Below, piece after piece: positions 21,186-55,721 of a DNA stretch of 64,000 nt. Each line of letters opens with the position of its first letter. The first letter of the stretch is position 1. The stretch is from Acidobacteriota bacterium (lineage in GTDB: Bacteria > Acidobacteriota > Holophagae > Acanthopleuribacterales > Acanthopleuribacteraceae). The stretch is from contig JAGQSC010000017.1 in NCBI GenBank assembly GCA_020439745.1, forward strand, positions 310,001-374,000, given 5' to 3'. Both the position numbers and the translations under genes were made by a program. The notes under the pieces are model-generated. The model was not told the DNA's origin, searched no databases, and worked only from the letters and a program-made list of their open reading frames with translations.

Positions 21186-21351
21186 CCTTCTAAAGCCGTT
21201 TCCCCGCGATCCTTCGAATGTTCGGATCTGACTGGGATCGTTGGGAATGTCACGAATTCCGTAGTGATGAACTGCTGCGCAACATGCCACAATGTGTTAA
21301 CCTTTTAGGCACTCGTCTCATACATACCGAACCACTTTTTTGGAGGGTCCC

Positions 21352-21870
21352 ATGGCCAAAGGTAGTTACCAGGAAGAGATTCCCGCTTCCAGGGTTAACA
21401 TTAAGTACGTCAAATATGTGGGTGATGCTCAGGAAGAAGTTGAGCTGCCCCTGAAACTGCTGTTAGTTGGCGATTACACCATGCGCGAAGACGACACACC
21501 GGTGGAAGATCGCAAAAAAATCAATGTCAATAAGAACAACTTTAACTCCGTCATGAAAGAACAGAACCTTGGCCTTAATTTTTCGGTCAAGAACATGCTC
21601 TCAGGCGAAGAGGGCGATGAGATGGCAGTGGACCTCAAATTTGAGTCACTGGAAGACTTCATGCCCGAAAATATCGCGAGTCAGGTTCCTGATCTCCAGG
21701 TACTACTGGAAGTGCGCAAGCTACTGATGGACTTGAAAGGTCGCGTGGTAAACAACACCGATTTCCGCAGAGAGCTCAGCAAGATCCTCGAAGATCCTGC
21801 GAAGATTGATGCGCTGCGTTCACAGCTGGATAAGATCGCGCCGCTGATCGAAAAAGACGAATCCAAATAA
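21352..21870 (+). CDS. tssB: TssB, T6SS sheath small subunit (VipA/ImpB)
   Basis: 172 residues. The TssB hallmarks are present: a basic start, PLKLLLVGDYT, the KKINVNKNNFNSVM stretch and the VDLKFESLEDFMPENI segment followed by a Leu-rich helix. TssB and TssC interlock to form the contractile cytoplasmic sheath. GGAGG lies six bases before ATG 21352. This opens the T6SS operon; about 165 bases of leader precede it, in which no convincing sigma-54 -24/-12 element was found. It is the only stand-alone TssB in the window. Confidence 0.95.
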   Translation: MAKGSYQEEIPASRVNIKYVKYVGDAQEEVELPLKLLLVGDYTMREDDTPVEDRKKINVNKNNFNSVMKEQNLGLNFSVKNMLSGEEGDEMAVDLKFESLEDFMPENIASQVPDLQVLLEVRKLLMDLKGRVVNNTDFRRELSKILEDPAKIDALRSQLDKIAPLIEKDESK

Positions 21871-21899
21871 ATCGACATTGAATAGAAGAAGGAGCACCC

Positions 21900-23411
21900 A
21901 TGGCTAAGTCACAACAGCAAGCTGAAGGTCAAGGACAAGAGCTATCACTGCTAGACAGTCTTTTAAGCAAGGTCGATCTGGCGACGCCAACTGAAGGTAT
22001 CGGTAAAGCCTCTCAAGTTGAAAATGCCAGTCAAAGCCAGCGTATCGCGACGGCAGTCAATCATTTTGTTTCTGCGCTTTTGTCCAGCGGCAAGAAAGTG
22101 GAAAAGCTCGATCGTGACCACATCGACAGCATTATCCGCGGGCTGGACTCAAAGATGAGCATGCAGATAAGCGAGATTATGCACCATGAGAAGTTCCAGG
22201 AAATGGAATCCGCTTGGCGCAGTCTCAAGTTTCTGGTCGATCGTACAAATTTCCGTTCGAATATCAAGATTGAAGTGTTGAATTGTTCCAAGGAAGACCT
22301 GCGGTCTGACATGGAGGATGCACCCGAACTGCTCCAATCCGGTATCTTCCAGCACATTTACAAGCAGGAATATGATCAGGCTGGCGGCGAACCCATTGGT
22401 GCAGTAATTGGCAACTATTACTTCAATCAAACCAATGCCGATATTGCCATGTTGAAGAACATGTCTGGTATCGCTGCCGGGTGTCACTGCCCATTCATTG
22501 GATCCGTCAATTCGAAGATGTTCGGATTGGATTCATCCACAGACCTACATAAGGTCAAGGACATGGAAGATCTGTTTGGCCAGATGGAGTACACCAAGTG
22601 GCGTGCCCTGCGCGATAGCGAAGATGCCCGTTATCTGGGACTCACATTTCCGCGCTTCCTGTTGCGTTCACCTTATGATCCCGAGAATAATCCCACCAAG
22701 GGGTTCAATTTCACTGAGACTGTGACCGGTAAAGAGCACGAACGTTACCTTTGGGGTAATGCATCGATGGCATTTGCCAGTCGGCTTACAGAAAGCTTCA
22801 GCAAGAACGGCTGGTGCGTGAACATCCGTGGACCACAGGCCGGTGGTGTGGTGGACGATTTGCCATTACATATGTTCGAAGACGAAGGCGAACAGAAGAT
22901 CAAGATTCCCACGGAAGTTATGATTTCTGATCGGCAGGAGCTGGAGCTGGCCGAGGCCGGGTTCATTCCATTGACCTTCTACAAGAACCGCGACTATGCG
23001 TGTTTCTTCTCGGCCCAGTCCACGCAAAAACCCAAAAAGTACAATACCGCAGAGGCAACGGCCAACTCCAAGCTTTCTGCCAATCTTCCCTACCTATTCC
23101 TCGCATCTCGATTGTCGCACTACTTGAAAGTGATACAACGCGAGAACATCGGTGCCGCCAAAGAGAAAGCCGATCTGCAGAAGGAACTGGATATTTGGAT
23201 CCAGAAACTGGTGACCACGATGCCCAACGCGGGTGCTGAGTTAAAAGCCGAGCGGCCACTTCGAGAAGCAAAAATCGTGGTATCCGACATCGAGGAGTCA
23301 CCGGGTTGGTACAACGTGGAAATGTTCATTCGCCCCCACTTCCAGGTGGAAGGTGTGAACGTGGCCCTGTCACTGGTTTCCAAGATGCCTAAAGGAAAAG
23401 ACGAGAAGTAA
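21900..23411 (+). CDS. tssC: TssC, T6SS sheath large subunit (VipB/ImpC)
   Basis: 503 residues, normal for TssC. The N-terminus carries LSLLDSLLSKVDL, matching the short helix by which TssC is recognised by the ClpV N-domain in studied systems. The body has the conserved EYDQAGGEPIGA, CHCPFIGSV, YTKWRALRDSEDARYLGL and ENIGAAKEK segments. With TssB it forms the sheath. The spacing to tssB is 29 bases with AGGAGC upstream. It is the canonical member of three TssC-related proteins encoded in this operon. Confidence 0.95.
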   Translation: MAKSQQQAEGQGQELSLLDSLLSKVDLATPTEGIGKASQVENASQSQRIATAVNHFVSALLSSGKKVEKLDRDHIDSIIRGLDSKMSMQISEIMHHEKFQEMESAWRSLKFLVDRTNFRSNIKIEVLNCSKEDLRSDMEDAPELLQSGIFQHIYKQEYDQAGGEPIGAVIGNYYFNQTNADIAMLKNMSGIAAGCHCPFIGSVNSKMFGLDSSTDLHKVKDMEDLFGQMEYTKWRALRDSEDARYLGLTFPRFLLRSPYDPENNPTKGFNFTETVTGKEHERYLWGNASMAFASRLTESFSKNGWCVNIRGPQAGGVVDDLPLHMFEDEGEQKIKIPTEVMISDRQELELAEAGFIPLTFYKNRDYACFFSAQSTQKPKKYNTAEATANSKLSANLPYLFLASRLSHYLKVIQRENIGAAKEKADLQKELDIWIQKLVTTMPNAGAELKAERPLREAKIVVSDIEESPGWYNVEMFIRPHFQVEGVNVALSLVSKMPKGKDEK

Positions 23412-23423
23412 TCGACATCATCC

Positions 23424-25157
23424 ATGGTTTCGCGCGATGACCGGATTTATTACGAAGAAGAGCTGAGATACCTGGCCCGAGAGGGCCAGGTTTTTGCTGA
23501 GCGCCATCCAGATATTGCGCGCTATCTGGGCTTGGAAGGTCTGAACCCGGAACTGAGGGATCCGCACTCGGAGCGCATCATCGAAGCGTTCGCCTTCTTG
23601 GTGGGCCGCATGCGGCGGTTCATGAATCACCAGTTCTCCGATCTGCTGCACTCGCTGTTTAACCTGATTTATCCCGCCTATTTGCGGCCCCTTCCCAGCA
23701 AAAGCATCGTGCAGTTGAGCCCCCAAGAAAGTATGCTGGACAAACCGGTAACCATTCCCAGGGGTACGTCGGTGTCGTCCGATGCAGTCGGACCCAATGG
23801 CGCCCGCTTTGAATTCACCACCACGCACCAGGTGGTGGTCCAACCCTTGGCATTGGATCGCGTGTACGTGGACCCCGAAACCAAAGCTGATTTTTCACTC
23901 TCCGCTGAGTTAACGGTACACCCGGGCGCGCAAGCAAAATCGCTTGTTTTTGACGAACTGGAGTTCTTTGTGTTCGGCGACCCCAGCGAGAGTTTTGAGC
24001 TATACAATCAACTTTCCAGGTTTCTGGAACGCATCGAACTAAAAGGCACCGTGACGCGAAAAGAGGATCTGCTGTTGGAGTGGAGCGGTTTCAACGCAGA
24101 CCATTCTCTGAACCAAACCGAAGATCACCACTTCTCGCAGCTCAATCACTTGCGTGATTACTTCGATTTTCCGCAACGCTACCTGTTCTTCAAGATCAAG
24201 GGGTTAGCGCCCTATTTGCAGCGACAGGGCGACGATTTGACTAAATTTCAGGTCAATTTCATTTTCAAACGACCGTTTACGTCGGGATACCAATACCGAA
24301 AGGACTCGTTGAGACTGTTTTGTGTACCCGTCCAAAACATCTTTTCCAAACCCTGCGAACCGTTCAAAGTGACCGGTCGCCAGATCGAATATCTCCTCAG
24401 TCCCGATCTCACACGCAATGACTTTGAGGTGTCTTCGGTGGACCGGGTCTTGGCTTCAAAGGAACAAAAGAAGGTTCAGGTTCAGCCCTATTACAATTTC
24501 ACCCATGTGGGCGTCAAGAGCGAGAAACGATGGTTTTACACCCTTCGTCGCGAAAACGCCTTTGACCAGGGCTGGGATACCTACATCCGTTTTCTGGATC
24601 TGGATGAAGAATCGCCGGACGTGCTCAGAGACCAGACCATTTCCATTAATGCACGCTGTACCAATCGGCATCATGCTCAGACACTCAAGATCGGGCAAAT
24701 CAGCCAACTATCTCAAACCGTGCCCGAAACCATCACTGGCAAGAATATTACTCAGGTGACTAAAGCATACTGGCCCGAAATCCACACCAGGGGCGATTGG
24801 GACTTTATGTCTCATATGGCTCTAAACTTCACTGATTTGGCCAATACCGAAGGGGTGAGGCGGCTGCTTGAGCTTTACAACATTCCTCAGAATGAGGCTG
24901 GAAAACGAAAAATTACAGGGATCGACAAAGTCTCCGATGCCAAGGATCATCTGATCATGCTTGGCCAAAGCGTGGCTGGTCGTAAGCTGGAGATGCATTG
25001 TAAGGAAGCTTACTTTCAGCACGACGGTGATTTGGCACTGTTTTCCCAAGTGTTCGGCCACTTTCTGCGTGCATACACACCCATCAACTCATTTATTCGA
25101 CTGATCATCCATAACTCAGACCAATCAGAACAGTTCCAGCACATCGCTGCTTACTAG
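23424..25157 (+). CDS. tssF: TssF, T6SS baseplate subunit
   Basis: 577 residues. It begins with the TssF pattern DDRIYYEEELRYLAREGQVFAERHPDIARYLGL and contains PHSERIIEAFAFLVGR and a FSDLLHSLFNLIYPAYLRPLPS stretch, all typical of the VasA/ImpG family. TssF binds TssG (two TssF per TssG) in the baseplate wedge, homologous to phage T4 gp6. It follows tssC by 12 bases and precedes tssG by two bases. Confidence 0.95.
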   Translation: MVSRDDRIYYEEELRYLAREGQVFAERHPDIARYLGLEGLNPELRDPHSERIIEAFAFLVGRMRRFMNHQFSDLLHSLFNLIYPAYLRPLPSKSIVQLSPQESMLDKPVTIPRGTSVSSDAVGPNGARFEFTTTHQVVVQPLALDRVYVDPETKADFSLSAELTVHPGAQAKSLVFDELEFFVFGDPSESFELYNQLSRFLERIELKGTVTRKEDLLLEWSGFNADHSLNQTEDHHFSQLNHLRDYFDFPQRYLFFKIKGLAPYLQRQGDDLTKFQVNFIFKRPFTSGYQYRKDSLRLFCVPVQNIFSKPCEPFKVTGRQIEYLLSPDLTRNDFEVSSVDRVLASKEQKKVQVQPYYNFTHVGVKSEKRWFYTLRRENAFDQGWDTYIRFLDLDEESPDVLRDQTISINARCTNRHHAQTLKIGQISQLSQTVPETITGKNITQVTKAYWPEIHTRGDWDFMSHMALNFTDLANTEGVRRLLELYNIPQNEAGKRKITGIDKVSDAKDHLIMLGQSVAGRKLEMHCKEAYFQHDGDLALFSQVFGHFLRAYTPINSFIRLIIHNSDQSEQFQHIAAY

Positions 25158-25159
25158 CC

Positions 25160-26080
25160 ATGTACAAAGCCAGCCACCTATTTCAGGAGATCAGGCGTCT
25201 GAAGCGCAAGGCTGCAGATGACGGAAAACATCTGCGCATTGAGCAACGGGCCAGTCGCGTGTTTGAGCCAGCGGTCGTTGCCTGTGAGCATGTCACTGAA
25301 AAAACCATGACCGCGACGATCAATTTTGAGGGTCTTTATGGTGGGTTGGGTGTGTTGCCTGGCTATTTCTCAGACGAAATCCTGCACCATCGCGACGGCC
25401 TGAACGCGCTTCAGGATTTTCTCGATCTCTTTAATCACCGCATGTTCGATTCGTTGTACACGATTTGGCGACGATCGCAGATATTCCTTGAGAACGGCGT
25501 GGATGCCAAACATCCCGAGAACGAAGAGATGGACCAGTTCCTGTGTGCATTGGCAGGGATTCCTGGCGATGACCATGCGCCTCTTTACATCAAGTGCCTC
25601 AGACGTCATCACTTCACCTTATTCCAACGCAAAGAAAAGACGGTATTGGGTTTGGCTAATGTTTTGCGCTCGTTCTTCGGTGACCTTAGTTTTGAGTTTG
25701 AACAGCACCAAGAACGCTACATTCCCATTCCGGTTTTTCAGAGATCTAAGCTTGGTGAACAACTCACCTTGGGTGCGAGCGGTACATTCTTGATCGGATC
25801 GCGAATCCGCGATATCAATGGCCGTTTCAATATCAAAGTTGCGCAGCTCGACTATGCAGGGTACATGCGGTTCTTGCCAGGCGGGGATTGGCATGAGTTG
25901 ATGGGTGGCATTGTGCGCGCCTACACTCAAGACCAATGGGCGTGTGGCTTGAGTTTGGAGTTAAGGGCGGCGGAAGTGCCTTCATTGAAACTGGGTGCAC
26001 ATCGCCTCAGTGCGGACTGTTGGGCGCTCAGCCAACCCAGTACCGAGCCGGCACTGGTTCGCTTGGGAGGCAGTTTATGA
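25160..26080 (+). CDS. tssG: TssG, T6SS baseplate subunit
   Basis: 306 residues of the VasB/ImpH family. It shows the conserved Gly-rich stretch FEGLYGGLGVLPGYF, then LNALQDFLDLFNHRMFDSLYTIWRRSQ, and a C-terminal GTFLIGSRIRDINGRFNIKVAQL segment. It joins TssF in the baseplate wedge (gp7/gp53-like). The stop overlaps the start of tssE (ATGA), indicating translational coupling. Confidence 0.93.
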   Translation: MYKASHLFQEIRRLKRKAADDGKHLRIEQRASRVFEPAVVACEHVTEKTMTATINFEGLYGGLGVLPGYFSDEILHHRDGLNALQDFLDLFNHRMFDSLYTIWRRSQIFLENGVDAKHPENEEMDQFLCALAGIPGDDHAPLYIKCLRRHHFTLFQRKEKTVLGLANVLRSFFGDLSFEFEQHQERYIPIPVFQRSKLGEQLTLGASGTFLIGSRIRDINGRFNIKVAQLDYAGYMRFLPGGDWHELMGGIVRAYTQDQWACGLSLELRAAEVPSLKLGAHRLSADCWALSQPSTEPALVRLGGSL

Positions 26081-26499
26081 GCCTCAATCATGGATACAAC
26101 TTTCTGAAGAAGATTACCGGTCAAAACTTGAGGCTCAATCAGGAAGAAAGCCTGGTGGAATCCATACAGTCCAATCTGGTTCAGGTTTTGAATACCCGAC
26201 AGGGCATGGTGGCTCATATCGCTGACTTTGGATTGCCGGACATCCACTACGTCTATTCGTCTTTGCCTAAGTCACTGGATTCATTGGGACTGGAAATAAA
26301 AAAGGTGCTTGAGAAATATGAACCCAGATTGGAGAAATTGAACGTACGCTTTGTAGAGAAAGCCAACGACACGTTTCGCGCCACCTATCACATTACGGGC
26401 GAGGTCCGAGAAGGTAGTAAGGTCTCCAAGATCACGTTTCAGACCGAAGTTCTACGCGATGGGTCAGCCGACGCCTTTGTGGTGAATCAATATGAGTAA
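26077..26499 (+). CDS. tssE: TssE, T6SS baseplate subunit (gp25-like)
   Basis: 140 residues with the gp25/lysozyme-like fold pattern: RLNQEESLVESIQSNL, then TRQGMVAHIADFGLPDI, which corresponds to the conserved gp25 segment containing GLPD, and a C-terminal strand-rich end. TssE is thought to initiate sheath assembly at the baseplate. ATG 26077 overlaps the tssG stop; an upstream frame to 25936 overlaps tssG and is not used. Its stop overlaps the next gene by eight bases. Confidence 0.92.
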   Translation: MSLNHGYNFLKKITGQNLRLNQEESLVESIQSNLVQVLNTRQGMVAHIADFGLPDIHYVYSSLPKSLDSLGLEIKKVLEKYEPRLEKLNVRFVEKANDTFRATYHITGEVREGSKVSKITFQTEVLRDGSADAFVVNQYE

Positions 26500-27832
26500 C
26501 CCAGCGTTGGTCAACCTACTCACCCTGTTCGAGGGCGACCAAGATGAGATCTGGGTGGGTCTAGACAGCATCATTATGGCCATCAACCAGTCGGTAGAAG
26601 CGCAACTGAACGCCATCATCCACCATCCACGATTCAAAGCTCTTGAATCCACATGGGTAGGCCTGGCCATGCTGGTTGACGATATCGGGGATTTACCCCT
26701 GGTCAAGTTGGAGATGTTAAACCTCTCCAAACGGGATTTGCAGGATGATTTTGAGGAGTATTTCGATCTAAGCGATAGTGGCCTGTTCTTCCACCTTTAC
26801 AAAACCGAATACGACCAGGCCGGGGGCGAACCTTATGCATCGGTGTTGTTGCAATACGAGTTCGCCAATACTGCACCTGATTTGAACCTCTTGAAGATGA
26901 TCTCAAAGGTCGCAGCTAGCTGTCACTGCCCGGCTGTGGCGAATGCGACGCCCGGCCTGTTCAATGTGAAGGATTACCAATCCGTTGAAGAAATCGAAGA
27001 TTTTGATTTGCTCTTCGAAGGTCGCGAGTTTATCAAATGGCGTCAACTGAGGCAGGCAGAGGACGCCCGTTACCTGGCCTTGATTCTCCCCAAAGTATTG
27101 GCTCGCAGACCCTACACCGACTACATTTTCCAAAGTTTTCGCTTCAACGAGACAGTGGCTCAACTTTCGGATACCAATTGGACCTATGCCACCTATATGT
27201 TTGGCATGATTCTGGGGCGCAGCTTCTCAAAATATGGATGGTGCGTACACATCCGAGGTCCGCGTACAGGCGGCCTTATTCCTCATATCGAACCGCTTCC
27301 CATTGGTTGTAAGGGTCTAGAGGTAAACCGTTATCCCCTGGAAATCGTGTTTTCGGACTACCAGGAACACAAGCTCAGTGACCAGGGCTTTGTCGTGCTA
27401 AACTACTTCAAAGAAACCAATCGCCCCTGTGTCTTCTCGGCACCTACCATTCAAAGTTATCTCAGGGATCGGTCACGTGTATTCAACAGTAACGACCGCT
27501 TGGCGGCCAGTCTTCCCTACATCTACCTCGTGTCGCGCATTGCGCACTATCAGAAAGTGATTCAACGGGAGAACGTGGGTACAGTGAAAGAGGCCAAAAC
27601 ACTTGAGTTGGAGTTGGCGAATTGGCTGAAGAAGCTGGTAACTTCCATGCCCGACCCGAACATGGACATCCGCAGTCGGTTCCCCTTGCGGGGCGGGATG
27701 GTGTCGGTGAAGGAAGATGCAAGCAATCCCGGTTTCTTTGATCTTCACTTGATTCTTCAGCCCCACTTGCAGTTGGAAGGCGTCAACGCCGAACTCACTC
27801 TGATATCGAAATTACCGCGCAGCAAGGAGTAA
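26492..27832 (+). CDS. Second TssC-family sheath protein (ImpD-like paralogue)
   Basis: 446 residues, clearly paralogous to the TssC at 21900-23411: EYDQAGGEPYAS, CHCPAVANA, FIKWRQLRQAEDARYLAL, YGWCVHIRGPRTGG and the VIQRENVGT stretch align throughout. It lacks about 50 residues at the N-terminus, including the LLDSLLSKVDL helix that marks TssC for ClpV. Some T6SS loci (for example the Rhizobium imp cluster with impC and impD) also encode two TssC-like proteins. Whether it caps, alternates with or replaces TssC is unknown. It overlaps tssE by eight bases and is five bases before clpV. Confidence 0.88.
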   Translation: MSNPALVNLLTLFEGDQDEIWVGLDSIIMAINQSVEAQLNAIIHHPRFKALESTWVGLAMLVDDIGDLPLVKLEMLNLSKRDLQDDFEEYFDLSDSGLFFHLYKTEYDQAGGEPYASVLLQYEFANTAPDLNLLKMISKVAASCHCPAVANATPGLFNVKDYQSVEEIEDFDLLFEGREFIKWRQLRQAEDARYLALILPKVLARRPYTDYIFQSFRFNETVAQLSDTNWTYATYMFGMILGRSFSKYGWCVHIRGPRTGGLIPHIEPLPIGCKGLEVNRYPLEIVFSDYQEHKLSDQGFVVLNYFKETNRPCVFSAPTIQSYLRDRSRVFNSNDRLAASLPYIYLVSRIAHYQKVIQRENVGTVKEAKTLELELANWLKKLVTSMPDPNMDIRSRFPLRGGMVSVKEDASNPGFFDLHLILQPHLQLEGVNAELTLISKLPRSKE

Positions 27833-27837
27833 TACCC

Positions 27838-30417
27838 ATGGACGCACAGAACATCAAGGCTCTGATCAGCAGGCTCAACGGTGCGATGACCAAGTCAATG
27901 GAGGCGGCAGCAGGAACCTGCATTCAACGCAGCCACCACGAAATTTCCATCGAGCATTTGTTGTTGAAGCTGCTGGATAATCCGCGCTCGGACATCCATT
28001 TGACCTTTACGAACCTGGGCATTCAGGCTGACGGTGTGCGGGCCGACCTGGAATCCTCATTAGCTGCGCTGAAAGACGGGAACTTTTCAAAGCCCCGATT
28101 CTCTGCGGCGCTGTTGGAGTTCCTTTCTTTGGCCTGGAATTTTGGTAGCCTCGAACGGAGTGAGACCAAGGTTCGTTCGGGTCATTTGTTGGTCGCCATG
28201 TTGCGCGACAAGGTGTGGGTTTCTGGTTCTGGCATCGCAGCGTTCGGTGCCATCAACGAGTCTGATTTGGTGGATCGTTTTGACGAGCTCACCGATGGCA
28301 GCGAAGAAGTTGCGGCAAGGAAGGTAACGCCCAGTGCAAGCGGCGGGATCCTGGACGAGTTCACCACGGACTTGGTCGCTGAGGCGCGTGCAGGTAATGT
28401 GGACCCAGTCATTGGACGTGACCATGAGATTCATCAAGTCATCGATATTCTCACCCGTCGTCGCAAGAACAACCCTATCCTGGTGGGAGAACCCGGTGTA
28501 GGTAAATCGGCCATTGTCGAGGGACTCGCGTTACAGATCTGCGAAGGTAACGTACCTCCGGTGCTTGAAAAAGTAGAGATTCGCAACCTGGATATGGGTC
28601 AACTGAAGGCTGGCGCATCCATGAAAGGCGAGTTTGAAGATCGCCTGAAGAACGTGATTGAGGCGGTTCAATCATCGCCGGTGCCCGTGATCCTGTTTAT
28701 CGATGAGGCCCATACGCTGATTGGGGCAGGGGGCGCCGCCGGATCTGGTGATGCAGCCAACTTGCTGAAACCAGCTTTGGCTCGTGGGCAGTTACGCACG
28801 ATCGCTGCTACAACCTGGTCGGAATACAAGAAATACATTGAAAAAGACCCCGCACTGGAGCGTCGCTTCCAGGTCGTCAAAGTAGACGAGCCCGAGGTTG
28901 GTAAGGCAACAGCCATGTTGCGCGGCGTTAAATCCAAATACGAGAAGCATCACAATGTGAAGATTCTGGATTCGGCTATTGAGGCTGCTGCATCCTTGGC
29001 AGACAAGTACATTTCGGGTCGACAGCTACCGGACAAAGCGATTGACCTGCTGGACACGTCCTGTGCGCGGGTTCGTCTGTCACTGAACTCCATGCCTTTT
29101 GAATTGACCTCATTGGAAAACCGGATTCGTCAAATGGAACACGAGATTGCCGACAAGCAGCACGAAACGGAACTAACGGGCGTCATCCACAAAGGTATGA
29201 AGGAGTTGGAGGAAGCTCTGGAAAATGCCCGCACGGAGAGTGCCTCCATCCGTGCGAAGTGGGAGTCGGAACGTGACCTTGTGGGCAAGATCGTTGAATT
29301 GGAGCTGCAGATCAACGAAGGCGCCGAGGGACGAGAAGCGTTGGCCAAGCAACTGTCGGAGCTTCAGGCACAAGCCGCGGAATTGGCAGGAGAACAGCAA
29401 TTGGTTGAGTACCGGGTCACACCCCGCACCATTTCCACCATTGTTAGCCAGTGGACTGGCATACCAGTAGGCAAAATGGTCAAGAATGATTTGGCCGATA
29501 TCCTCAGAATCGAAGACAAATTGAAGGAACGCGTGCTGGGACAAGACCATGCGGCGGAACGCATTGCACGGGCCATCAAGGCTTCAAAGGCCAAGGTCAA
29601 TAACCCGGACACACCCATTGGTGTATTTTTGGCCGTCGGTCCGTCGGGAACTGGTAAGACGGAAATGGCGTTAACCCTGGCCGATTCACTCTTTGGTGGT
29701 GAGCGGTTCGTGGTGCAGATCAACATGTCTGAGTATCAGGAGAAACATACGGTGTCGCGCATGATTGGGTCTCCTCCGGGATACGTCGGGTATGGAGAGG
29801 GCGGGGTGCTCTCAGAAGCTGTCCGTCAACGTCCCTACACGGTGGTGTTACTCGATGAAGTGGAGAAGGGGCACCCCGATGTGATGAACCTGTTTTATCA
29901 GGTATTCGACAAAGGGCACCTTGCGGATGGCGAGGGCAGGATCATCGATTTCAAGAACACCATCATCATGATGACCAGTAACTTGGGTAGTTCGATCATC
30001 GAAGACATGTGTACGGGTGATGAATGGCCCGACGCAGGTGAATTGCTGGAAGCGATTCGACCTACCCTGAACCAGTTTCTTAAGCCGGCGTTGCTTGCGC
30101 GTATGACCGTGCTTCCCTATTTCCCGATTGCCGAAAAGGTGATGAAGAAAATCGTTGGCTTGAAGCTGCGAAAAGTGGTCAAGCGGCTCAAGCAGAATCA
30201 CGGCATTAACACGCTGGTCGAACCCTCAGTCATCCAATCCATCTCGGATCGATGCCGATTGGTAGAGGCTGGCGCGCGCAATATCGACCACATCATCAAT
30301 GCGGAACTGTTGCCGCTTATTGCAAATCAAGTGTTGTCTCAATTGATGGAGGAAGCATTGGGTGAGCAACTGACCATCGGTTGGGACGACGGCTCTTTCC
30401 AATTGAATTTTTCCTGA
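27838..30417 (+). CDS. clpV: ClpV (TssH), T6SS sheath-recycling AAA+ ATPase
   Basis: 859 residues with standard Hsp100 layout: Clp N-domain (about 1-150), first AAA module (Walker A GEPGVGKS, Walker B VILFIDEAHTL, Arg finger ALERRF), coiled-coil middle domain (about 410-530), second AAA module (GPSGTGKTEMAL, VVLLDEVEKGH) and a C-terminal domain. ClpV disassembles contracted sheaths by threading TssC. Position inside the tss operon distinguishes it from ClpB. Both ATPase sites look intact, in contrast to the related FHA protein at 33453-35477. Confidence 0.95.
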   Translation: MDAQNIKALISRLNGAMTKSMEAAAGTCIQRSHHEISIEHLLLKLLDNPRSDIHLTFTNLGIQADGVRADLESSLAALKDGNFSKPRFSAALLEFLSLAWNFGSLERSETKVRSGHLLVAMLRDKVWVSGSGIAAFGAINESDLVDRFDELTDGSEEVAARKVTPSASGGILDEFTTDLVAEARAGNVDPVIGRDHEIHQVIDILTRRRKNNPILVGEPGVGKSAIVEGLALQICEGNVPPVLEKVEIRNLDMGQLKAGASMKGEFEDRLKNVIEAVQSSPVPVILFIDEAHTLIGAGGAAGSGDAANLLKPALARGQLRTIAATTWSEYKKYIEKDPALERRFQVVKVDEPEVGKATAMLRGVKSKYEKHHNVKILDSAIEAAASLADKYISGRQLPDKAIDLLDTSCARVRLSLNSMPFELTSLENRIRQMEHEIADKQHETELTGVIHKGMKELEEALENARTESASIRAKWESERDLVGKIVELELQINEGAEGREALAKQLSELQAQAAELAGEQQLVEYRVTPRTISTIVSQWTGIPVGKMVKNDLADILRIEDKLKERVLGQDHAAERIARAIKASKAKVNNPDTPIGVFLAVGPSGTGKTEMALTLADSLFGGERFVVQINMSEYQEKHTVSRMIGSPPGYVGYGEGGVLSEAVRQRPYTVVLLDEVEKGHPDVMNLFYQVFDKGHLADGEGRIIDFKNTIIMMTSNLGSSIIEDMCTGDEWPDAGELLEAIRPTLNQFLKPALLARMTVLPYFPIAEKVMKKIVGLKLRKVVKRLKQNHGINTLVEPSVIQSISDRCRLVEAGARNIDHIINAELLPLIANQVLSQLMEEALGEQLTIGWDDGSFQLNFS

Positions 30418-30432
30418 TCAAAAGGTGTTTTC

Positions 30433-31908
30433 TTGATCGACCGTTATCGGGTTTTTCATCTCATTGTCACTCAGTGTGACTTGTCAGCGTCAGACTCCAT
30501 TCTGCGTTCGGCCTTGCACGAGCTTATGCAGGCGTTGCAGGCCGATCGAGGCGCGTATCTGGCTGTCGGAGCCGGGGGCCTGCGTTGCCTTCAAGCTCGT
30601 ACCAGCGCGGGTGCGGATCTTCAAAATGTGCAGGAGTCATTGCCCTGGGAGATCCTGCAGAAAATACCCAGCTCAAGGCAACACTACTCAGCGAAGATGC
30701 CAATCACACCAAAGGGACGAAACATTGGCAGTTCGTTTAGCCGGTTCGAAATCAAGAACATGTTGTGTGTGCCCACGCTGTCCCAGGGACAGGTGGTCGG
30801 TGTGGGCTATTTGGAGCGGAGTCCTCAAGCGCCCAACTTTGCACCCAGTGAAATCAAAGTAGTCAGCGAGATTTTTCAGGATGTGGAGTTGATGCTGGGC
30901 AATAGCTGGAAGTATCAACGTCAGTCATTTGAGATGGATCAAATGAAAGGCGAAATCGCCATGTCCAAGATCAACATGGTCTCGGCGGATGCAGGTATGT
31001 TGCGGCTGTTCCATCAAATCACCAAGGTCGCGAAAGTGCCGTCCACCGTCTTGATACATGGTGAGTCTGGTACCGGCAAGGAACTCGTCGCGCGGGCCAT
31101 CTACAATCTGAGCGAAGGTAAAGGTCCATACATCGCCATGAACTGTGGTGCCATCGAACAGAGTTTGATGAAGAGTGAACTGTTTGGGCATTTGAAGGGC
31201 AGTTTTACAGGCGCCCACAAGGACCGTGAAGGCCTCTTCAAAAAGGCCGAAGGTGGCATATTGTTCATGGATGAAGTCGGCGAGATGGCCATGGATATTC
31301 AAGTCGCGCTGTTACGGACGCTCGAACTGGGCGAGATCATGCCGGTCGGTTCGGATCGACCCGAAGTGGTCCGGACTCGGGTGATTGCCGCCACGCACCG
31401 AGACTTAGGGGGATTGGTTCAGGAGCGCCAGTTTCGCAACGATTTGTTTCAGAGGCTCAGAGGAATCACCCTGGAAGTCCCACCCCTGCGGGACCGGCCC
31501 AGTGACATTCCACTGTTGGCCGAACATTTCGTCAAGTTGTTTAACACGAAACTTGGTCTGAACTATAAGGGGTTCCGCGAGGAGTCGCTGGCATTACTCA
31601 AGCAACGTGAATATCGCGATGGCAACGTACGCGAATTGAAACACATCATCGAACGGGCCATGGTGTTTGAAGATGATCCCGATTTGATTGGTCCAGAGTT
31701 TTTGTCTGACAACGATCCTAAATTGGGCGCCTCGTCGGGTGTGGCTGAGAGCCTTGAGTTTGAGGAACAACTCAATCGCTATGCGCGGCAAGTGATTGAA
31801 GTGGCCATCACCGCTTGCGGCGGCAATAAGACCAAAGCCATGAAGCGATTGGGATTAGCGCGAACCACGTTTTACAGTATGTTGAACAAATACGGAATCC
31901 AGGATTAG
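30433..31908 (+). CDS. Sigma-54-dependent transcriptional activator with GAF domain
   Basis: 491 residues: a GAF-like sensor region (about 20-155), an AAA+ activator domain (about 178-410) and a Fis-type helix-turn-helix (about 455-490, NKTKAMKRLGLARTTFYSML). Walker A is GESGTGKE, the sigma-54 contact loop is GSFTGA, and FMDEVGEM is Walker B. It should activate sigma-54 promoters in response to a small molecule or partner bound by the GAF domain. Similar regulators (VasH type) control T6SS genes in vibrios. The start is taken as TTG 30433 for want of a better codon with a binding site; the gap to clpV is 15 bases. Confidence 0.9.
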   Translation: MIDRYRVFHLIVTQCDLSASDSILRSALHELMQALQADRGAYLAVGAGGLRCLQARTSAGADLQNVQESLPWEILQKIPSSRQHYSAKMPITPKGRNIGSSFSRFEIKNMLCVPTLSQGQVVGVGYLERSPQAPNFAPSEIKVVSEIFQDVELMLGNSWKYQRQSFEMDQMKGEIAMSKINMVSADAGMLRLFHQITKVAKVPSTVLIHGESGTGKELVARAIYNLSEGKGPYIAMNCGAIEQSLMKSELFGHLKGSFTGAHKDREGLFKKAEGGILFMDEVGEMAMDIQVALLRTLELGEIMPVGSDRPEVVRTRVIAATHRDLGGLVQERQFRNDLFQRLRGITLEVPPLRDRPSDIPLLAEHFVKLFNTKLGLNYKGFREESLALLKQREYRDGNVRELKHIIERAMVFEDDPDLIGPEFLSDNDPKLGASSGVAESLEFEEQLNRYARQVIEVAITACGGNKTKAMKRLGLARTTFYSMLNKYGIQD

Positions 31909-31919
31909 GGAGTGTAATT

Positions 31920-33452
31920 ATGAATATCCAGCCATTTCTAGGGGGTGCGCGGGTAAAAGAGGACCTCCAATTTCAATTCTGCATCCTGGGTAACTTCACA
32001 GGTCAGCATGAAGAAAGACCGTCCTACGAACTCAAAGCGGTGAACCGCAACACTTGGGACAGTCTTTTCACCGACTTGAAACCATCCGTCCGCACGGTGA
32101 TCAGCTTGCCAGCAGTCAGCGATTTTGAAGTAGAACTGGTGTTCACCGGTCTTCAGGGTTTTTCGGAGAAGGGTGTGGTGTCGGCCGTCCCTTTTCTTTC
32201 AGATCTACAGGCTGCCATTCAGGCTTTTGGCGCGGCATCGGAAGAACAGCCACTGGATGTGAACGCGCTGTTAAGCAACCATTCACCATTGAATGTGGTG
32301 AAAACCATGGCCATGAAAACCAGCCAAGGCCCCGCCTTGGACTTGTTGAACATGGTGGATATAGGAGACGAAGAAGACGACGGTCCGCAATTACCGCAAC
32401 TCAAAGCTGCCTTTTCTGAAGGAACGTACCAGGGTCACAAACGTCAAGCGGTGGTTCATGAGCTTGAGGGTCTTAAAGCAGAAGTGCTGAGGCAGATCCA
32501 GAAGGATGCCCGATTCGATGAACTGCATGCTCATTGGCGTGGGCTGAAATCGGTGTTTGGCAGTCTCGGCAAGAACGTGAAGCTGTCGTTGATTGACTGT
32601 GATAAAGATGAACTGTGCGATGCGTTTTTCCTCACCTTCGTGAAACCCGATTCCGGTGATGCCGCGAGGCTGGATTTGGCTGCCACCAGCTTTGAGTTCA
32701 CGAAAATGGAATCCGATCTTCACACGCTTTATCATCTCGGCCGGATGGCGGAGTCCGTATCGGTACCTGTGTTGCTCAACGCATCGCCTGCGCTTTTTGG
32801 GGTCAGGTCGTTTCAGCATATGCAACATATGCATGATTTCAGTTCGCGGCTTTCTGGACCTGATTATGCCAAGTGGCGGAAGCAAAGAGACGAGACAGGT
32901 TCACGTTGGTTGTTCCTGTGTGTCAACAAGTTCAGTCAGGACGATGGTGCGGTCTGGGCACCTGGGAGCTTTGCCATGCTATCCGTCATGGCCCAAGCCC
33001 TGGCAGCACACCAATGGCCCGGCGAGTTGCTGGCCGCAGCGGGACATTGGCAAGAGACCGCACAGAGCCAACTGGTTCTCACGCGCGACCAAGCTCATGA
33101 CTTGAGCTACGAAGGGTTCTGCAGCATCAGTTCGGAATCAGCGCAAAGTGAATTGGCCATTATGGGTATGAACTGCCTGGCCGCCATCAAGATTGGACCG
33201 GGTCAGTCACCAGCTGCCCGTGACTTCGTGGAGTACACACTGAGTTATGCTTTTTTCGTGGGTTGCTTGTCAAGGTTCTTAGTGGACCATGCCAACGATA
33301 GTGAACTGGAGTCCAAGCTGCGGGACTTCATGGGTTCCAACAACCCGGATGATCTGAAAGTTGAAGAAGATGAGGGCATGCGCATTTTTCGCGCCAAACC
33401 CATGTTCAGTATTTATGGTAGTCGACCCGATGTGGTGTTAGCCATTCAGTAA
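31920..33452 (+). CDS. TssB-TssC fusion-like sheath protein (third TssC homologue)
   Basis: 510 residues with two sheath-subunit regions in one chain. Residues about 15-105 align with TssB of this operon: FQFCILGNFT with LKLLLVGDYT, AVNRNTWDSLF with INVNKNNFNSVM, and VELVFTGLQGFS with VDLKFESLEDFM. Residues about 190-510 align with TssC (HWRGLKSVFGSL with AWRSLKFLVDRT; VKLSLIDCDKDEL with IKIEVLNCSKEDL; YAKWRKQRDETGSRWL with YTKWRALRDSEDARYL). A helix GPALDLLNMVDIGD (about 137-150) resembles the ClpV-recognised N-terminal helix of TssC. The EYDQAGGEP motif is missing. Function is unknown; a sheath cap, adaptor or decoy is possible. Its stop immediately abuts the stop of the convergent FHA gene. 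Confidence 0.82.
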   Translation: MNIQPFLGGARVKEDLQFQFCILGNFTGQHEERPSYELKAVNRNTWDSLFTDLKPSVRTVISLPAVSDFEVELVFTGLQGFSEKGVVSAVPFLSDLQAAIQAFGAASEEQPLDVNALLSNHSPLNVVKTMAMKTSQGPALDLLNMVDIGDEEDDGPQLPQLKAAFSEGTYQGHKRQAVVHELEGLKAEVLRQIQKDARFDELHAHWRGLKSVFGSLGKNVKLSLIDCDKDELCDAFFLTFVKPDSGDAARLDLAATSFEFTKMESDLHTLYHLGRMAESVSVPVLLNASPALFGVRSFQHMQHMHDFSSRLSGPDYAKWRKQRDETGSRWLFLCVNKFSQDDGAVWAPGSFAMLSVMAQALAAHQWPGELLAAAGHWQETAQSQLVLTRDQAHDLSYEGFCSISSESAQSELAIMGMNCLAAIKIGPGQSPAARDFVEYTLSYAFFVGCLSRFLVDHANDSELESKLRDFMGSNNPDDLKVEEDEGMRIFRAKPMFSIYGSRPDVVLAIQ

Positions 33453-35477
33453 TTACTGACGCCTCTGCGACTTCCATGTATCCATAAACACGCGAGCTGC
33501 TACTTCGTGGAAATGGTCTTCGGCATAGGCTGTGTCGATTAGGTTGGCTCTCGCTGCATATTCGCTCCACAGCTTCTTGACATTGGATCCGATGCCGGGA
33601 ACGTTCTTCAATGCCTCTGGGTCCAGGCGCTCCCAAAACACATCGAACCAGGTTCTAAAGCTGGATTGGTATGAGGTTAGCAACACCACCATGTGGGATT
33701 TGAGTTCCTCAATTTTTTGTTCCTTGGATAGCATCCGCTCTTCGTTAAGACTGCGTGTTTGATCTGAATAGTGTAACGAGACCTTAAATTCATTCTTGAC
33801 GAAGGTTTGGACCAAGGTTTCCAGCTGCAACAAGAGCTCTGATGTCTGATCGTCGATCTTGGTGACGGCAGCTTGGGGAACCTGCTTTGGCAGAATGGGC
33901 TGTTTGCTGGTCGTGGCTCGGGTCTTTCCGATCCATTCGTCGTAGATGTCTCGGAAAAAGACCTTGCCCAACATGCCCATGGCTCGGGTTTCTTCGGCGA
34001 GCTCTTTAAAAGGGAAATCGATGCCGTGGGATCGACTGGCACAAAGGCGCAAGAAATCGCCCATAGCATCGAAGTTATTGGGGGCTGGGCCGGCAATGTA
34101 ATCATCGAAGAACTCTTGAGCTTCCTGAGAGACGAGACAGCGCACTTGATGTTCGAAATTCTTGATCAAATGCTGATGTATCTGCGTGTTTACTTGCGAT
34201 ACGTAACGATCGAGATCCACCATGATGGTTTCCTGGAACAGATCGCCTATCATGCCGAAATGGATATCTCGAATGGAGATCATGAGATTGGACCTACGAT
34301 TGCGAATGGCGTGAATCAGCGGCCCACGGTCCAGGTAGGATTCCTGCATGGATTCGAGCAGATGGTCAAAATGATCAATGCCTACCACGCGGTCGCGGCC
34401 CAGAGAGCGGATGATGGAGTCCACGTACATGCGCAGGTGCTCTGGTCTATTGAATATGACGAACACCCGCGAGTCGAAGAGAATTGCCTCGTCGGCATAG
34501 GCTCGGGGGAACTCAAAATGGCCAAGGGGATGAAAGATTCGGTGCATCACTGATGTCTTGCCACACCCTTTACTGCCCTTCAAAACGGCGAACCCGTTCT
34601 TGTTGATGGCCTTGTGTATGTCCGTCCAGAACGTTTCGGGCAGAATGAGTTCCTTTTCGACGGATATGGGACCCGTCCCCAGGGTCGTCGTTTCACTTTT
34701 CTTTTTGGTTGTGGATGCAAACCAGTTGGTCTTGTTCTCATGCCAATCAAGCAGCGCCGACAAGATGTTGAAGTCCTCGTCCAGCAACAGCTTAAGAAAT
34801 CGGGCCGCATCAAATTCGCCGATCAACGTTTGAATCTCCATGATGGCTTGTACCTTGGGACACACATAGAAGGCATTGGGCGGCTGTGATGTGAGCTGGA
34901 ACTTCAAGAAATCGTTGAGCCAACGATATGGGATCTCAAAAAAGTGGTGCGTGGTCCAACGAGTGACCACATCGTCCATGGTCACTTTGAGGGGTTTGAG
35001 GAAATTGTTGACCAGGTCGGGATGGTGTTCGTGCAGTCCAACCAGGAGATGAAACGCGCTCACCGCCGGATTGCGTAAGGATTGAGCCTGCTTCAACGCG
35101 CTGGCGTAAACAGGAAAGTTCTGCCAGTTTTTGCTCTTGCTGGAATCTCCGCTTATGGGCGCCAGGTTGTTCTCTTCAGATGATTTTTCGATCGTGAAGA
35201 CGGTCGATCCAAGCACAAAGAAGTCGGTGACCTTCTCAAAGGACCCAGCTTTCACTTTTCGAGAATTGATGAAGGTCCCGTTGGACGAGTTCTGGTCACA
35301 AACCTCGAAATCGTTATGGTTCACCCGCAAGATGGCGTGCTTTGTCGACATGCACGGGTCGTGTCCTACGACGATATGGTTGTTGAGGCCACGACCAACT
35401 GTTAACGGGCTTCCATGTTCGATCGTGAACGAATGCCCTTCAAGGGGACCAGAAATAATTTGTACTGTCCGCTTCAT
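33453..35477 (-). CDS. FHA domain protein with ClpV-like N-domain and degenerate AAA module
   Basis: 674 residues. An FHA domain (about 2-98, with TVGRG and SSNGTFIN) is followed by a region resembling the two Clp N repeats (about 122-172, SAFHLLVGL; about 205-243), then an AAA module aligning with the first AAA domain of ClpV (Walker A GSKGCGKTS at 301-309; Walker B VVGIDHFD at 364-371). The catalytic Glu of Walker B is His369, and the ClpV Arg-finger segment ALERRFQ reads MIGDLFQ, so hydrolysis is probably lost. Residues about 545-674 resemble the C-terminal domain of T6SS FHA proteins (TagH/Fha). A promoter at 35517-35545 supports ATG 35477; an open frame to 35561 has no binding site. Convergent with the fusion gene. 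Confidence 0.75.
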   Translation of the reverse strand: MKRTVQIISGPLEGHSFTIEHGSPLTVGRGLNNHIVVGHDPCMSTKHAILRVNHNDFEVCDQNSSNGTFINSRKVKAGSFEKVTDFFVLGSTVFTIEKSSEENNLAPISGDSSKSKNWQNFPVYASALKQAQSLRNPAVSAFHLLVGLHEHHPDLVNNFLKPLKVTMDDVVTRWTTHHFFEIPYRWLNDFLKFQLTSQPPNAFYVCPKVQAIMEIQTLIGEFDAARFLKLLLDEDFNILSALLDWHENKTNWFASTTKKKSETTTLGTGPISVEKELILPETFWTDIHKAINKNGFAVLKGSKGCGKTSVMHRIFHPLGHFEFPRAYADEAILFDSRVFVIFNRPEHLRMYVDSIIRSLGRDRVVGIDHFDHLLESMQESYLDRGPLIHAIRNRRSNLMISIRDIHFGMIGDLFQETIMVDLDRYVSQVNTQIHQHLIKNFEHQVRCLVSQEAQEFFDDYIAGPAPNNFDAMGDFLRLCASRSHGIDFPFKELAEETRAMGMLGKVFFRDIYDEWIGKTRATTSKQPILPKQVPQAAVTKIDDQTSELLLQLETLVQTFVKNEFKVSLHYSDQTRSLNEERMLSKEQKIEELKSHMVVLLTSYQSSFRTWFDVFWERLDPEALKNVPGIGSNVKKLWSEYAARANLIDTAYAEDHFHEVAARVFMDTWKSQRRQ

Positions 35478-35545: not shown

Positions 35546-35602
35546 GCGAGCCCGCCGGCACTATAAAGGATGATCAACGCAGGATTTGCGGCATCAATAG
35601 AA

Positions 35603-52426: not shown

Positions 52427-55400
52427 TTAGCCGAAGAACATTCGCAACGTGTTTAATGTGGCCCGGGCATCTGCCATTTGCGAGAGTTCTATGGGAACTT
52501 GAGAGGACAGAGCTGGGTTCAATCGATCTTCCGCAATCAGAAACTCCCGCAAGGCGTCCAGCCGCAATAGCTCCATATTGAGTTTATTGTTGATCGCATA
52601 ATCAACCGCTTCTCGGAAGGGTTTGTCCAAGGATTGACCGTTCTTGAAGTAGTTACGGACCAAGCGAATACGAGGAATCTGTAGGCGTACAAATGCAGAC
52701 GGCGATGAAGTGAGTTTGTCGTAAATCGCTTCGAACCCTTCGGGAGAAATGAGGTCTGGACGCATCGCGGCCAGGAATGAGCTGAGCCATGCCTTGGCAC
52801 TGGAACCGAGGTCTCCGAGCGACTCCATCAAGTGATCGTACTGAAAGATCTTCGCGTCTCGTAACAAGAGTTCAGTAATGAGTTGGCACAATGGCGTCAG
52901 TGACGCCAAATGCTCATGAGAGGCTTTGGATGTGTTGATGCGAGCAATCAGTTTTCTTAGGTCCTCGGCACGCATGAAGTTCAGATACAGGAATAACGAT
53001 TCGCGAAACCTCGCCGTCTCGCGATCCGTGCGGTCGACAAAACCGTCGGCGAACGTGGACATGGTTTCATGGGCCTTGGCCAACTGAAAAAGCTGGATAT
53101 AGGCGTGATACCGCATGGCTGCAATGGCCGATTCGTTTTGAGGCAATAACTCAATCTTTTTGTTTTGCCAATAGTTCACCAACTGCTGAGGTTGCGCTTG
53201 GAGTCGTTGGGTCTCAACCAGCGCGATGATATTGCTGGCAAAAAGGTCACTTCGACTGGAGAGTTGGCTCTCCAATTTTTTCACCAACCGGTCCGCGCGA
53301 TCTTGATAACCCATGGCTACAAGAATTGGGATTAGTTGGGTCGATGAATGCACATCAACTTGATTGATGAATTGGTCCGAATAGGCCTGGGAGATCAGTT
53401 CATTGACCCGGTCCGCGTTGTCCTGATCGTATTCCAGAATCGCATTCAGGGACAAGCTGTTGATATTTTGATCGATTGCCAGGGCTCGCTTGGCGAACTT
53501 CAAAGCCTGACTGGGATCGGTATGACGATGGGCAAGCGCCAACATGCTCCAAAATTCCTGATTGGATTGCAGGGCGGGGTATGCGACATAGGGCTTGAGG
53601 ATGTTGCGAACCGGCTCATAGTTGGCATTTTGAAAGCAATACCGGGCGTAGTCTACCGCGTACTTGGCTGCCTTTTCGTCTTTGTCTGACTTGTGAAACA
53701 GCTCGGACAGGATCAGCCACAACGGAGGTGAATACGGAAGAAACGCCTCGGTCTCTCGTTCCATGGTCTCTGCAATCTTGTTGTAGCGTTTTTTGCGATC
53801 CGAAGATGAATACGAATCGACCAGAAAGTCTTTGACGTTCTTCTTTTTCCAGCGAAAGCCTTCCATGCCAGACGCAGAGTAGTCCAATAGACCAAGCTCA
53901 TCCGCCTTCTTCAAGGTGATCGCCAGCTTGTCCAGTGTGGCGTCAGCCACCTTCTGCAGTACTTTCAAGTCCAGACCAGAAGGACTCAGTGCCACCCATT
54001 CGAGGTGGTTGAGTTGTTCGTGGGAAAACTCACTGAGTTCTTCGGGAATATTGGATTTGGCTTTCATGGGTTTCGTTTCAACGATACGAATATCAATGAA
54101 ACACAGGGTGCCGTCCTGGACAAAAAGGGTATTGTTGCCCTTCAACTTGGGAATCAGGTCTAGGAAGGCTTGAATGTTTTCACCGGACTCTTCGATGAGC
54201 TGCATGACGGCTTCCAGAGGAACGCGGCAGTCTCCAAATTGCGAGGCAAGGTAGTCAGAAATGGTCAACACATCGGGAAACGACATCGGCAGCAATTCAA
54301 CTTTGTCGCCCAGTTCAGGCACCGACTGTTTTCCAGTCATGATCATATGCACGCGCCCATCGTCCCGATTGGCGATGTGATCCGTAATGTTGCGAAGGAA
54401 CTTGTGAAAGGTCTCCGATGCCAGATCCACATCGTCAATCAATATGGCAAATGGATGTTGGCTCGCACGAATGAGATTGATGAATGCCGATAGAATGCTC
54501 GATTCGTGAATTTGCTGGTCGTAGTTGGGTACTTTCCACCCCAACTGAGGCAGCACGCTACCAATGATATTGATCCAGGGCTTGATGTCCGGATCAGCTT
54601 TGGATGGCAGCGAAATGTTCTTGATCACCAGTTCCATGAAGTCAATCTGGTTGAGACTCTTATTGCACGTGATCTTGATCACCGCATCAGGTGCGACTTT
54701 TTGGGCCAGGTTCTCGGCAAGGGTACTCTTGCCGCTCCCCACGTCGCCCTGAATAAACACGACGTTCTTTTCGATGATCTTGTCGCGACAATGGTCAAGA
54801 AAATGGCTGTGTAAGAACGCGCCCTTGGAAACCAAGTCAATGGGCGGCGAGGGCTGGGCATCGGTTTGCGGCTGGGCATTACCCAAAATGCGGTCGAGTT
54901 CGATGAAAACTTCAGCTCCGGAGCCAAATCTCTTATGGGGTTCCTTATGGAGTATCCGTTCCATGAAGGTATCAATTTCTTTGGGCAGATCTCGCAACTG
55001 TGAAGGCGGTTTGGGTTGGGTCACCAGGCGTTGATAGACAGTCTCAGCCAACGTATGACCGCGAAAAGGCTTGGTACCGGTCAACATGTCGTAAATCATC
55101 ACGCCCAGTGAGAAGATGTCGGCGGCGTAATTCACTTCATCACCGCTGAGACACTCCGGGGCCACATAATAGGCGCTGCCCATAAATGTGTTTCGATTGG
55201 TGTAAAGCGTGAGGTTCTCAACCTTCATGATGCCAAAGTCAATCAGCTTCACCACTTGGCTGGGATCAATCAGAATATTTTGCGGTTTCAGGTCCCGATG
55301 CACGATATGGTGTTTATGGATAAAATCCAGGACTTCGCACAGTTCCCTAATGTGTTCCAGGAAGATCTTCAGGTGTTCAAAGACATCCTTGTCTTGCCAA

Positions 55401-55699: not shown

Positions 55700-55721
55700 G
55701 CATACCCTCAATCACTTCATG

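What the first reader, a model, noticed from the sequence alone, without database searches (positions are those of the whole stretch)
33453..35477. FHA protein that contains a pseudo-ClpV half
Seen in sequence: after an FHA domain the protein carries two segments resembling the two Clp N repeats and then an AAA module that aligns with the first AAA domain of the ClpV encoded 3 kb away, including DDYIAG against DKYISG at its C-terminal end. Walker A is intact (GSKGCGKTS), but the Walker B Glu is His and the Arg-finger segment ERRF reads GDLF. Known: T6SS FHA proteins (Fha1/TagH) act in post-translational control of assembly by threonine phosphorylation, and the ClpV N-domain recognises a TssC helix. 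Inference: this is a non-hydrolysing ClpV mimic that binds ATP and sheath subunits under phospho-control, perhaps protecting sheaths from ClpV or recruiting it. I know of no described T6SS regulator with this architecture.
Basis: partly seen in the sequence, partly recalled or inferred. Interest (0 to 1): 0.85.

Follow-up and report, generated by a model that had tools for sequence, protein, structure and literature searches.

The report
FHA regulator with Clp-like pseudo-ATPase core
A protein encoded beside a bacterial "speargun" (type VI secretion) gene cluster joins a phosphate-sensing domain and a known secretion-regulator tail to a middle part that looks like half of the motor that recycles the spear, but with the motor's working residues lost, suggesting a switch built from a retired motor.

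Summary
The gene is on the minus strand (33453-35477, 674 aa). It encodes FHA (1-97), a Clp_N-like helical domain (107-254), an AAA-type NTPase with lid (276-516) and a C-terminal helical domain. The first Clp_N repeat is significant by profile. The NTPase is not assignable to Clp D1 by its own sequence, but AlphaFold plus Foldseek puts ClpC, ClpB, ClpA and Hsp104 first. Walker A and the Walker B "IDH" (His for Glu) are invariant in all 11 homologues; Arg-finger, sensor-1 and pore-loop signatures are gone.

So this is best read as the lineage's Fha/TagH protein with a Clp N-D1-like pseudo-ATPase inserted. The family is confined to Acanthopleuribacteraceae (Holophagae, Acidobacteriota): 11 copies in all 7 held genomes. 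It abuts T6SS genes only in the window's genus; in three others it sits next to a Ser/Thr kinase, 44-115 kb from ClpV. Whether it binds sheath or ClpV is untested; "ClpV-specific mimic" is not established. New variant of a known kind.

The parts
33453..35477 (-). whole gene, 674 aa, ATG start (the GTG at 35561 is further upstream but homologues start at this ATG)
35187..35477 (-). FHA domain, aa 1-97; GR28-29, S44, H47, N66-G67 invariant in 11 homologues
   Evidence: Foldseek FHA matches
34716..35159 (-). Clp_N-like domain, aa 107-254 (first repeat by profile, second by predicted structure only)
34215..34652 (-). AAA-type NTPase core, aa 276-421
34554..34577 (-). Walker A GSKGCGKT, aa 301-308; GxxGxGK[ST] in all 11
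34371..34379 (-). Walker B IDH, aa 367-369; His in place of catalytic Glu in all 11
33930..34214 (-). helical lid, aa 422-516, with long first helix and short strands as in Clp D1 lids; W515 in 9 of 11 where Clp has WTGIP (by eye)
33456..33857 (-). C-terminal helical domain, aa 541-674, T6SS_FHA_C-like (TagH/Fha C-terminus)
21340..33452 (+). T6SS cluster tail-to-tail with the gene: TssB, TssC, TssF, TssG, TssE, second TssC, ClpV, sigma54 activator, third sheath-like ORF
27838..30417 (+). ClpV of the same cluster, intact Walker B (FIDEAH) and ERRF

Best explanation
It is the Fha/TagH-type post-translational regulator of the Acanthopleuribacteraceae T6SS, into which a Clp N-D1-like module has been built between the FHA domain and the T6SS_FHA_C-like tail. 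Proposed mechanism: the FHA domain reads a phospho-threonine on a T6SS membrane or baseplate component, as Fha does with TssL in Agrobacterium; the tail docks on the apparatus or on TagF; the middle module binds nucleotide without efficient hydrolysis and serves as a nucleotide-gated interaction or assembly platform (most likely contacting ClpV or sheath through the Clp_N-like domain, or oligomerising), so that sheath assembly or recycling is coupled to the phospho-signal. Shown by sequence and prediction: domain order, invariant Walker A, invariant IDH, loss of Arg finger/sensor 1/pore-loop motif, TagH-like tail in clade A, family-wide conservation. Inferred: T6SS function, non-hydrolysis, partner identity.
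For: T6SS_FHA_C-like tail: hhalign 93-96% probability and hmmsearch to 7e-8 (Z=1000) for seven clade-A members; Pfam PF20232 alone gives its best genome-wide hit on this gene in G001, G005 and G006 (E 0.016-0.025, below cut-off) and 0.0011 on L008's tail. No gene in these 7 genomes passes the PF20232 cut-off. All 7 genomes have T6SS and one clade-A copy each, as expected of vertical inheritance. Tail-to-tail with the T6SS cluster in G000 and G001. TagF-like gene after TssM in the T6SS regions read, and in 6 of 7 genomes. Kinase gene adjacent in G003, G005, G006. [quoted passage not shown] aeruginosa, Fha binds pThr-TssL in Agrobacterium (PMC3953482) and TagF binds Fha directly (PMC5995506). 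Clp N-D1-like fold.
Against: Gene is 44-115 kb from ClpV in three genomes and on another contig in G002 and G004; clade B has no detectable TagH tail; TagH similarity is below Pfam's curated cut-off; co-occurrence with T6SS is confounded by shared ancestry, as other Holophagae with T6SS lack the gene where searched; AAA part is not Clp D1 by sequence alone; AlphaFold confidence for the C-terminus is low and overall pTM is 0.42.
Confidence: 0.55

Rival explanations
1. ClpV-specific decoy: the Clp_N-like domain binds the TssC N-terminal helix and the module shields sheaths from ClpV or joins ClpV hexamers as a dead subunit.
For: Clp_N-like fold and order N then AAA; invariant Walker A with altered Walker B; adjacency to TssB/TssC/ClpV in the window's genus.
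Against: No ClpV-specific signal: the ClpB profile scores better than ClpV; the V. cholerae ClpV groove uses Ile10/Phe87 (PMC4239648), whereas the matching stretch here reads mostly V-[CTS]-P and the leading helix is short (my reading); the Arg finger expected for a shared ring is missing; gene often unlinked to ClpV.
Confidence: 0.2
2. General Ser/Thr-kinase signalling scaffold, not T6SS: a STAND- or Orc-like nucleotide switch with FHA, regulated by the neighbouring kinase; T6SS adjacency in one genus is incidental.
For: Kinase neighbour conserved in three genomes; Pfam matches of the NTPase are mostly to AAA_16/AAA_14/AAA_22/nSTAND3; clade B lacks the TagH-like tail.
Against: T6SS_FHA_C-like tail in all seven clade-A members; Foldseek ranks Clp/Hsp104 first for both models; the kinase is not conserved beyond the three genomes.
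Confidence: 0.2
3. Degenerating fusion without function.
For: Loss of catalytic residues; low identity (26-36%) across genera.
Against: Walker A, IDH and FHA pThr residues invariant in 11 divergent copies, with further invariant columns along the whole chain; one clade-A copy kept in every genome plus a second clade in four.
Confidence: 0.03

Closest known systems
T6SS Fha/TagH (Fha1 of P. aeruginosa, Fha of A. tumefaciens; NCBI tagH; Pfam T6SS_FHA_C PF20232)
   Same: N-terminal FHA with pThr residues; C-terminal domain alignable to T6SS_FHA_C over about 85 residues; T6SS with TagF-like gene
   Different: TagH proteins seen here have a proline-rich linker in the middle (L135, L136), not a Clp_N + NTPase module; tail is below the Pfam cut-off; gene often not in the T6SS operon
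ClpV/TssH (TIGR03345) and class-I Clp ATPases (ClpB, ClpC, ClpA, Hsp104)
   Same: helical N-domain followed by an AAA module with long-helix lid; predicted fold matches best
   Different: no D2, no M-domain, Walker B Glu to His, no Arg finger, no conserved sensor 1, no pore-loop KGEFE; no pairwise BLAST similarity
STAND / Orc-Cdc6-like AAA switches (AAA_16, AAA_14, nSTAND3)
   Same: Pfam's weak sequence matches of the NTPase
   Different: preceded by a Clp_N-like domain; Clp-like lid; fold search ranks Clp proteins above them
ClpN-repeat and FHA fusions in vWA-MoxR-type conflict systems (PMC7159879)
   Same: ClpN and FHA domains reused in NTP-dependent systems
   Different: in the passages read the two occur in different contexts, with no T6SS_FHA_C and no AAA in the same chain

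Membership tests
T6SS Fha/TagH | N-terminal FHA with pThr-binding residues | tested here: met
   Pfam 6e-11; R29, S44, H47, N66-G67 invariant
T6SS Fha/TagH | C-terminal T6SS_FHA_C domain above curated cut-off | tested here: inconclusive
   hhalign 93-96%, hmmsearch 7e-8 to 1e-5 for clade A with the widened model, but best PF20232 score 19.3 vs cut-off 23.7; clade B no match
T6SS Fha/TagH | encoded in or beside T6SS cluster | tested here: inconclusive
   yes in G000 and G001; no in G003, G005, G006 (44-115 kb) and on another contig in G002 and G004
T6SS Fha/TagH | regulates T6SS by a phospho-threonine pathway | not testable with these tools
   needs genetics
ClpV/TssH | Clp_N domain | tested here: met
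   first repeat by profile in clade B members, both repeats by predicted fold; weak in the window copy alone
ClpV/TssH | two AAA domains D1 and D2 | tested here: not met
   single NTPase; C-terminus is not D2
ClpV/TssH | catalytic Walker B Glu and Arg finger | tested here: not met
   IDH invariant; no conserved Arg in the segment matching ERRF
ClpV/TssH | TIGR03345 match | tested here: not met
   NCBIfam scan shows only FHA-type families and a weak ComGA match

The most novel reading that the evidence does not exclude
A T6SS regulator that uses a catalytically dead Clp N-D1 module as a phospho-gated decoy or nucleation partner for ClpV or the sheath, so that a pseudo-ATPase derived from the disassembly motor decides when sheaths are recycled.
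Probability: 0.22. Interest if true: 0.85.

Novelty: new variant of a known kind. Interest (0 to 1): 0.62.

Why it matters
How Fha/TagH links threonine phosphorylation to ClpV recruitment and sheath cycling is not mechanistically resolved in the papers read. A natural Fha-like protein carrying a Clp-like pseudo-ATPase in the same chain would make that link physically explicit and directly testable, and would be an unusual re-use of a disassembly motor as a switch. It also gives a candidate Fha for these acidobacterial T6SS, whose genomes show no other gene passing the TagH model.

Tried and rejected
Direct BLASTP to the neighbouring ClpV: nothing. PDB sequence search with the window protein alone: only P-loop noise. 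DDYIAG motif as evidence: rejected, not conserved. AAA part alone as Clp D1 by sequence: not specific; a type II secretion-type ATPase and a kinase-linked AAA scored as high. Apparent full-length Bdellovibrionales relatives: only the FHA matches. Relatives elsewhere: no match in plasmids or viral contigs; in 396 phylum genomes only partial hits outside the window's genus, those inspected being Clp N-domains or P-loop proteins. IcmF-related (PF06761) search empty, but a TssM with IcmF-related_N is present in the window genome, so 'no TssM' was rejected.

Full report
OBSERVATION. The gene lies on the minus strand; the 674-aa product begins at the ATG at 35477 and its stop is at 33453-33455, immediately tail-to-tail with the last ORF of the T6SS cluster, which ends at 33452. 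Upstream on the plus strand are TssB, TssC, TssF, TssG, TssE, a second TssC, ClpV, a GAF-sigma54 activator and a third sheath-like ORF. The window comes from a Holophagae genome of the Acanthopleuribacter/Sulfidibacter family (named relatives).

FAMILY. Searching 60 related genomes gave 11 full-length homologues in 7 genomes, all of one family; none in the other class genomes sampled. In an even sample of 396 phylum genomes only the window's own genus gave full-length hits; the rest were partial, and those I inspected were Clp N-domains or P-loop proteins. A tree gives two clades: A, one copy in each of the 7 genomes, and B, in four genomes.

ANATOMY. FHA, aa 1-97 (Pfam 6e-11), with the phosphothreonine-binding residues invariant in all copies. 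aa 107-254: AlphaFold predicts two sets of helices as in Clp_N; Pfam Clp_N hits four members with best 5.5e-7, and profile-profile comparison to ClpB/ClpV/ClpC covers the first repeat. aa 276-421: NTPase core; aa 422-516: helical lid. The whole 107-516 block aligns collinearly with Clp N-D1 over 344 columns, score 65 against a maximum of 31 in 40 column-shuffled controls; the N part alone scores 54 and the NTPase alone only 35, no better than with unrelated P-loop ATPases. Foldseek of the full model puts ClpB, ClpA, ClpC and Hsp104 first, and with 107-516 alone the first fourteen hits are all class-I Clp or Hsp104 chains. TM-scores are modest (about 0.3-0.36 to the query) with high rmsd, which fits two domains packed differently from Clp. 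So Clp_N is well supported; Clp D1 is likely but not proven.

CATALYTIC RESIDUES. GxxGxGK[ST] and IDH are invariant in 11 sequences at 26-69% identity to the window protein. His replaces the catalytic Glu everywhere; no Arg is conserved at the finger position; the sensor-1 and pore-loop positions vary. I infer nucleotide binding with little or no hydrolysis; this was not tested.

THE C-TERMINUS. It aligns with the C-terminal domain of TagH/Fha proteins: hhalign 93-96%, hmmsearch up to 7e-8 (Z=1000) for all seven clade-A members, but nothing for clade B. Searching these genomes with Pfam PF20232 alone, the best hit in G001, G005 and G006 is this very gene (E 0.016-0.025), below the curated cut-off; no other gene in the seven genomes scores better than E 0.3. 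A link is the acidobacterial protein in L137, which passes the PF20232 cut-off, lacks FHA in the frame I read and precedes a TssK-like ORF.

CONTEXT. In G000 and G001 the gene adjoins the T6SS cluster. In G003, G005 and G006 it is 44-115 kb from ClpV on the same contig and is followed by a conserved Ser/Thr kinase of 1039-1097 aa; this kinase is not conserved in the other genomes. All seven genomes have VipA; other Holophagae with VipA lack the gene where both were searched, so co-occurrence may mirror ancestry. The T6SS of the window genome also has TssK, DotU, TssM, a TagF_N-like protein and TssA on another contig, and TagF-like genes occur in six of the seven.

FUNCTION. In P. aeruginosa Fha1 co-localises with ClpV1 and is needed for its foci, and in Agrobacterium Fha binds phospho-TssL (PMC3953482); TagF acts through Fha (PMC5995506). 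An Fha-type protein with a Clp-like pseudo-ATPase fits this pathway. My preferred model is a nucleotide-gated, phospho-reading scaffold of the T6SS; a ClpV-specific decoy is a subset of that model which the data neither support specifically nor exclude. The papers searched describe no such architecture (the Acanthopleuribacteraceae genome paper has no mention of T6SS), but the library is open-access only.

VERDICT. Real, conserved, restricted to one family as far as searched, best filed as a new variant of the T6SS Fha/TagH kind rather than as a ClpV member.

Noticed in passing
window 31920-33452 (+): Third sheath-like ORF, 510 aa, with weak VipA similarity at the N-terminus and VipB similarity at 257-338; VipA-like 518-540 aa frames sit beside ClpV in G003-G006 too, and the G001 copy is 50% identical. 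Tail-to-tail with the FHA gene.
   Followed up: partly
window 26492-27832 (+): Second TssC paralogue (446 aa) directly before ClpV, in addition to TssC at 21900-23411.
   Followed up: no
L187:6236-9520 (G000:C33): 1095-aa Clp-type protein (D1 and D2) with an apparent N-terminal hydrophobic segment and a degenerate D1 Walker B (IPDCHE), just before TssK/DotU/TssM genes; no comparable ORF before TssK in G001.
   Followed up: partly
L187:16078-17073; L192:5086-6729; L193:6607-8487; L194:4614-6368: TagF_N-like proteins in the TssM region, 332 aa in the window genome and 548-627 aa in the large genomes, the extension without a Pfam match.
   Followed up: partly
L137:171-980 (+): Acidobacterial protein with T6SS_FHA_C but no FHA in the frame read, directly upstream of a TssK-like ORF.
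   Followed up: no
window 52427-55711 (-): 1094-aa Ser/Thr kinase with an AAA_16/AAA_22 domain, 17 kb from the FHA gene.
   Followed up: no
window 34371-34379 (-), aa 367-369: The invariant His in the Walker B position of all 11 homologues is unexplained: its conservation suggests it does something, not merely that Glu was lost.
   Followed up: no
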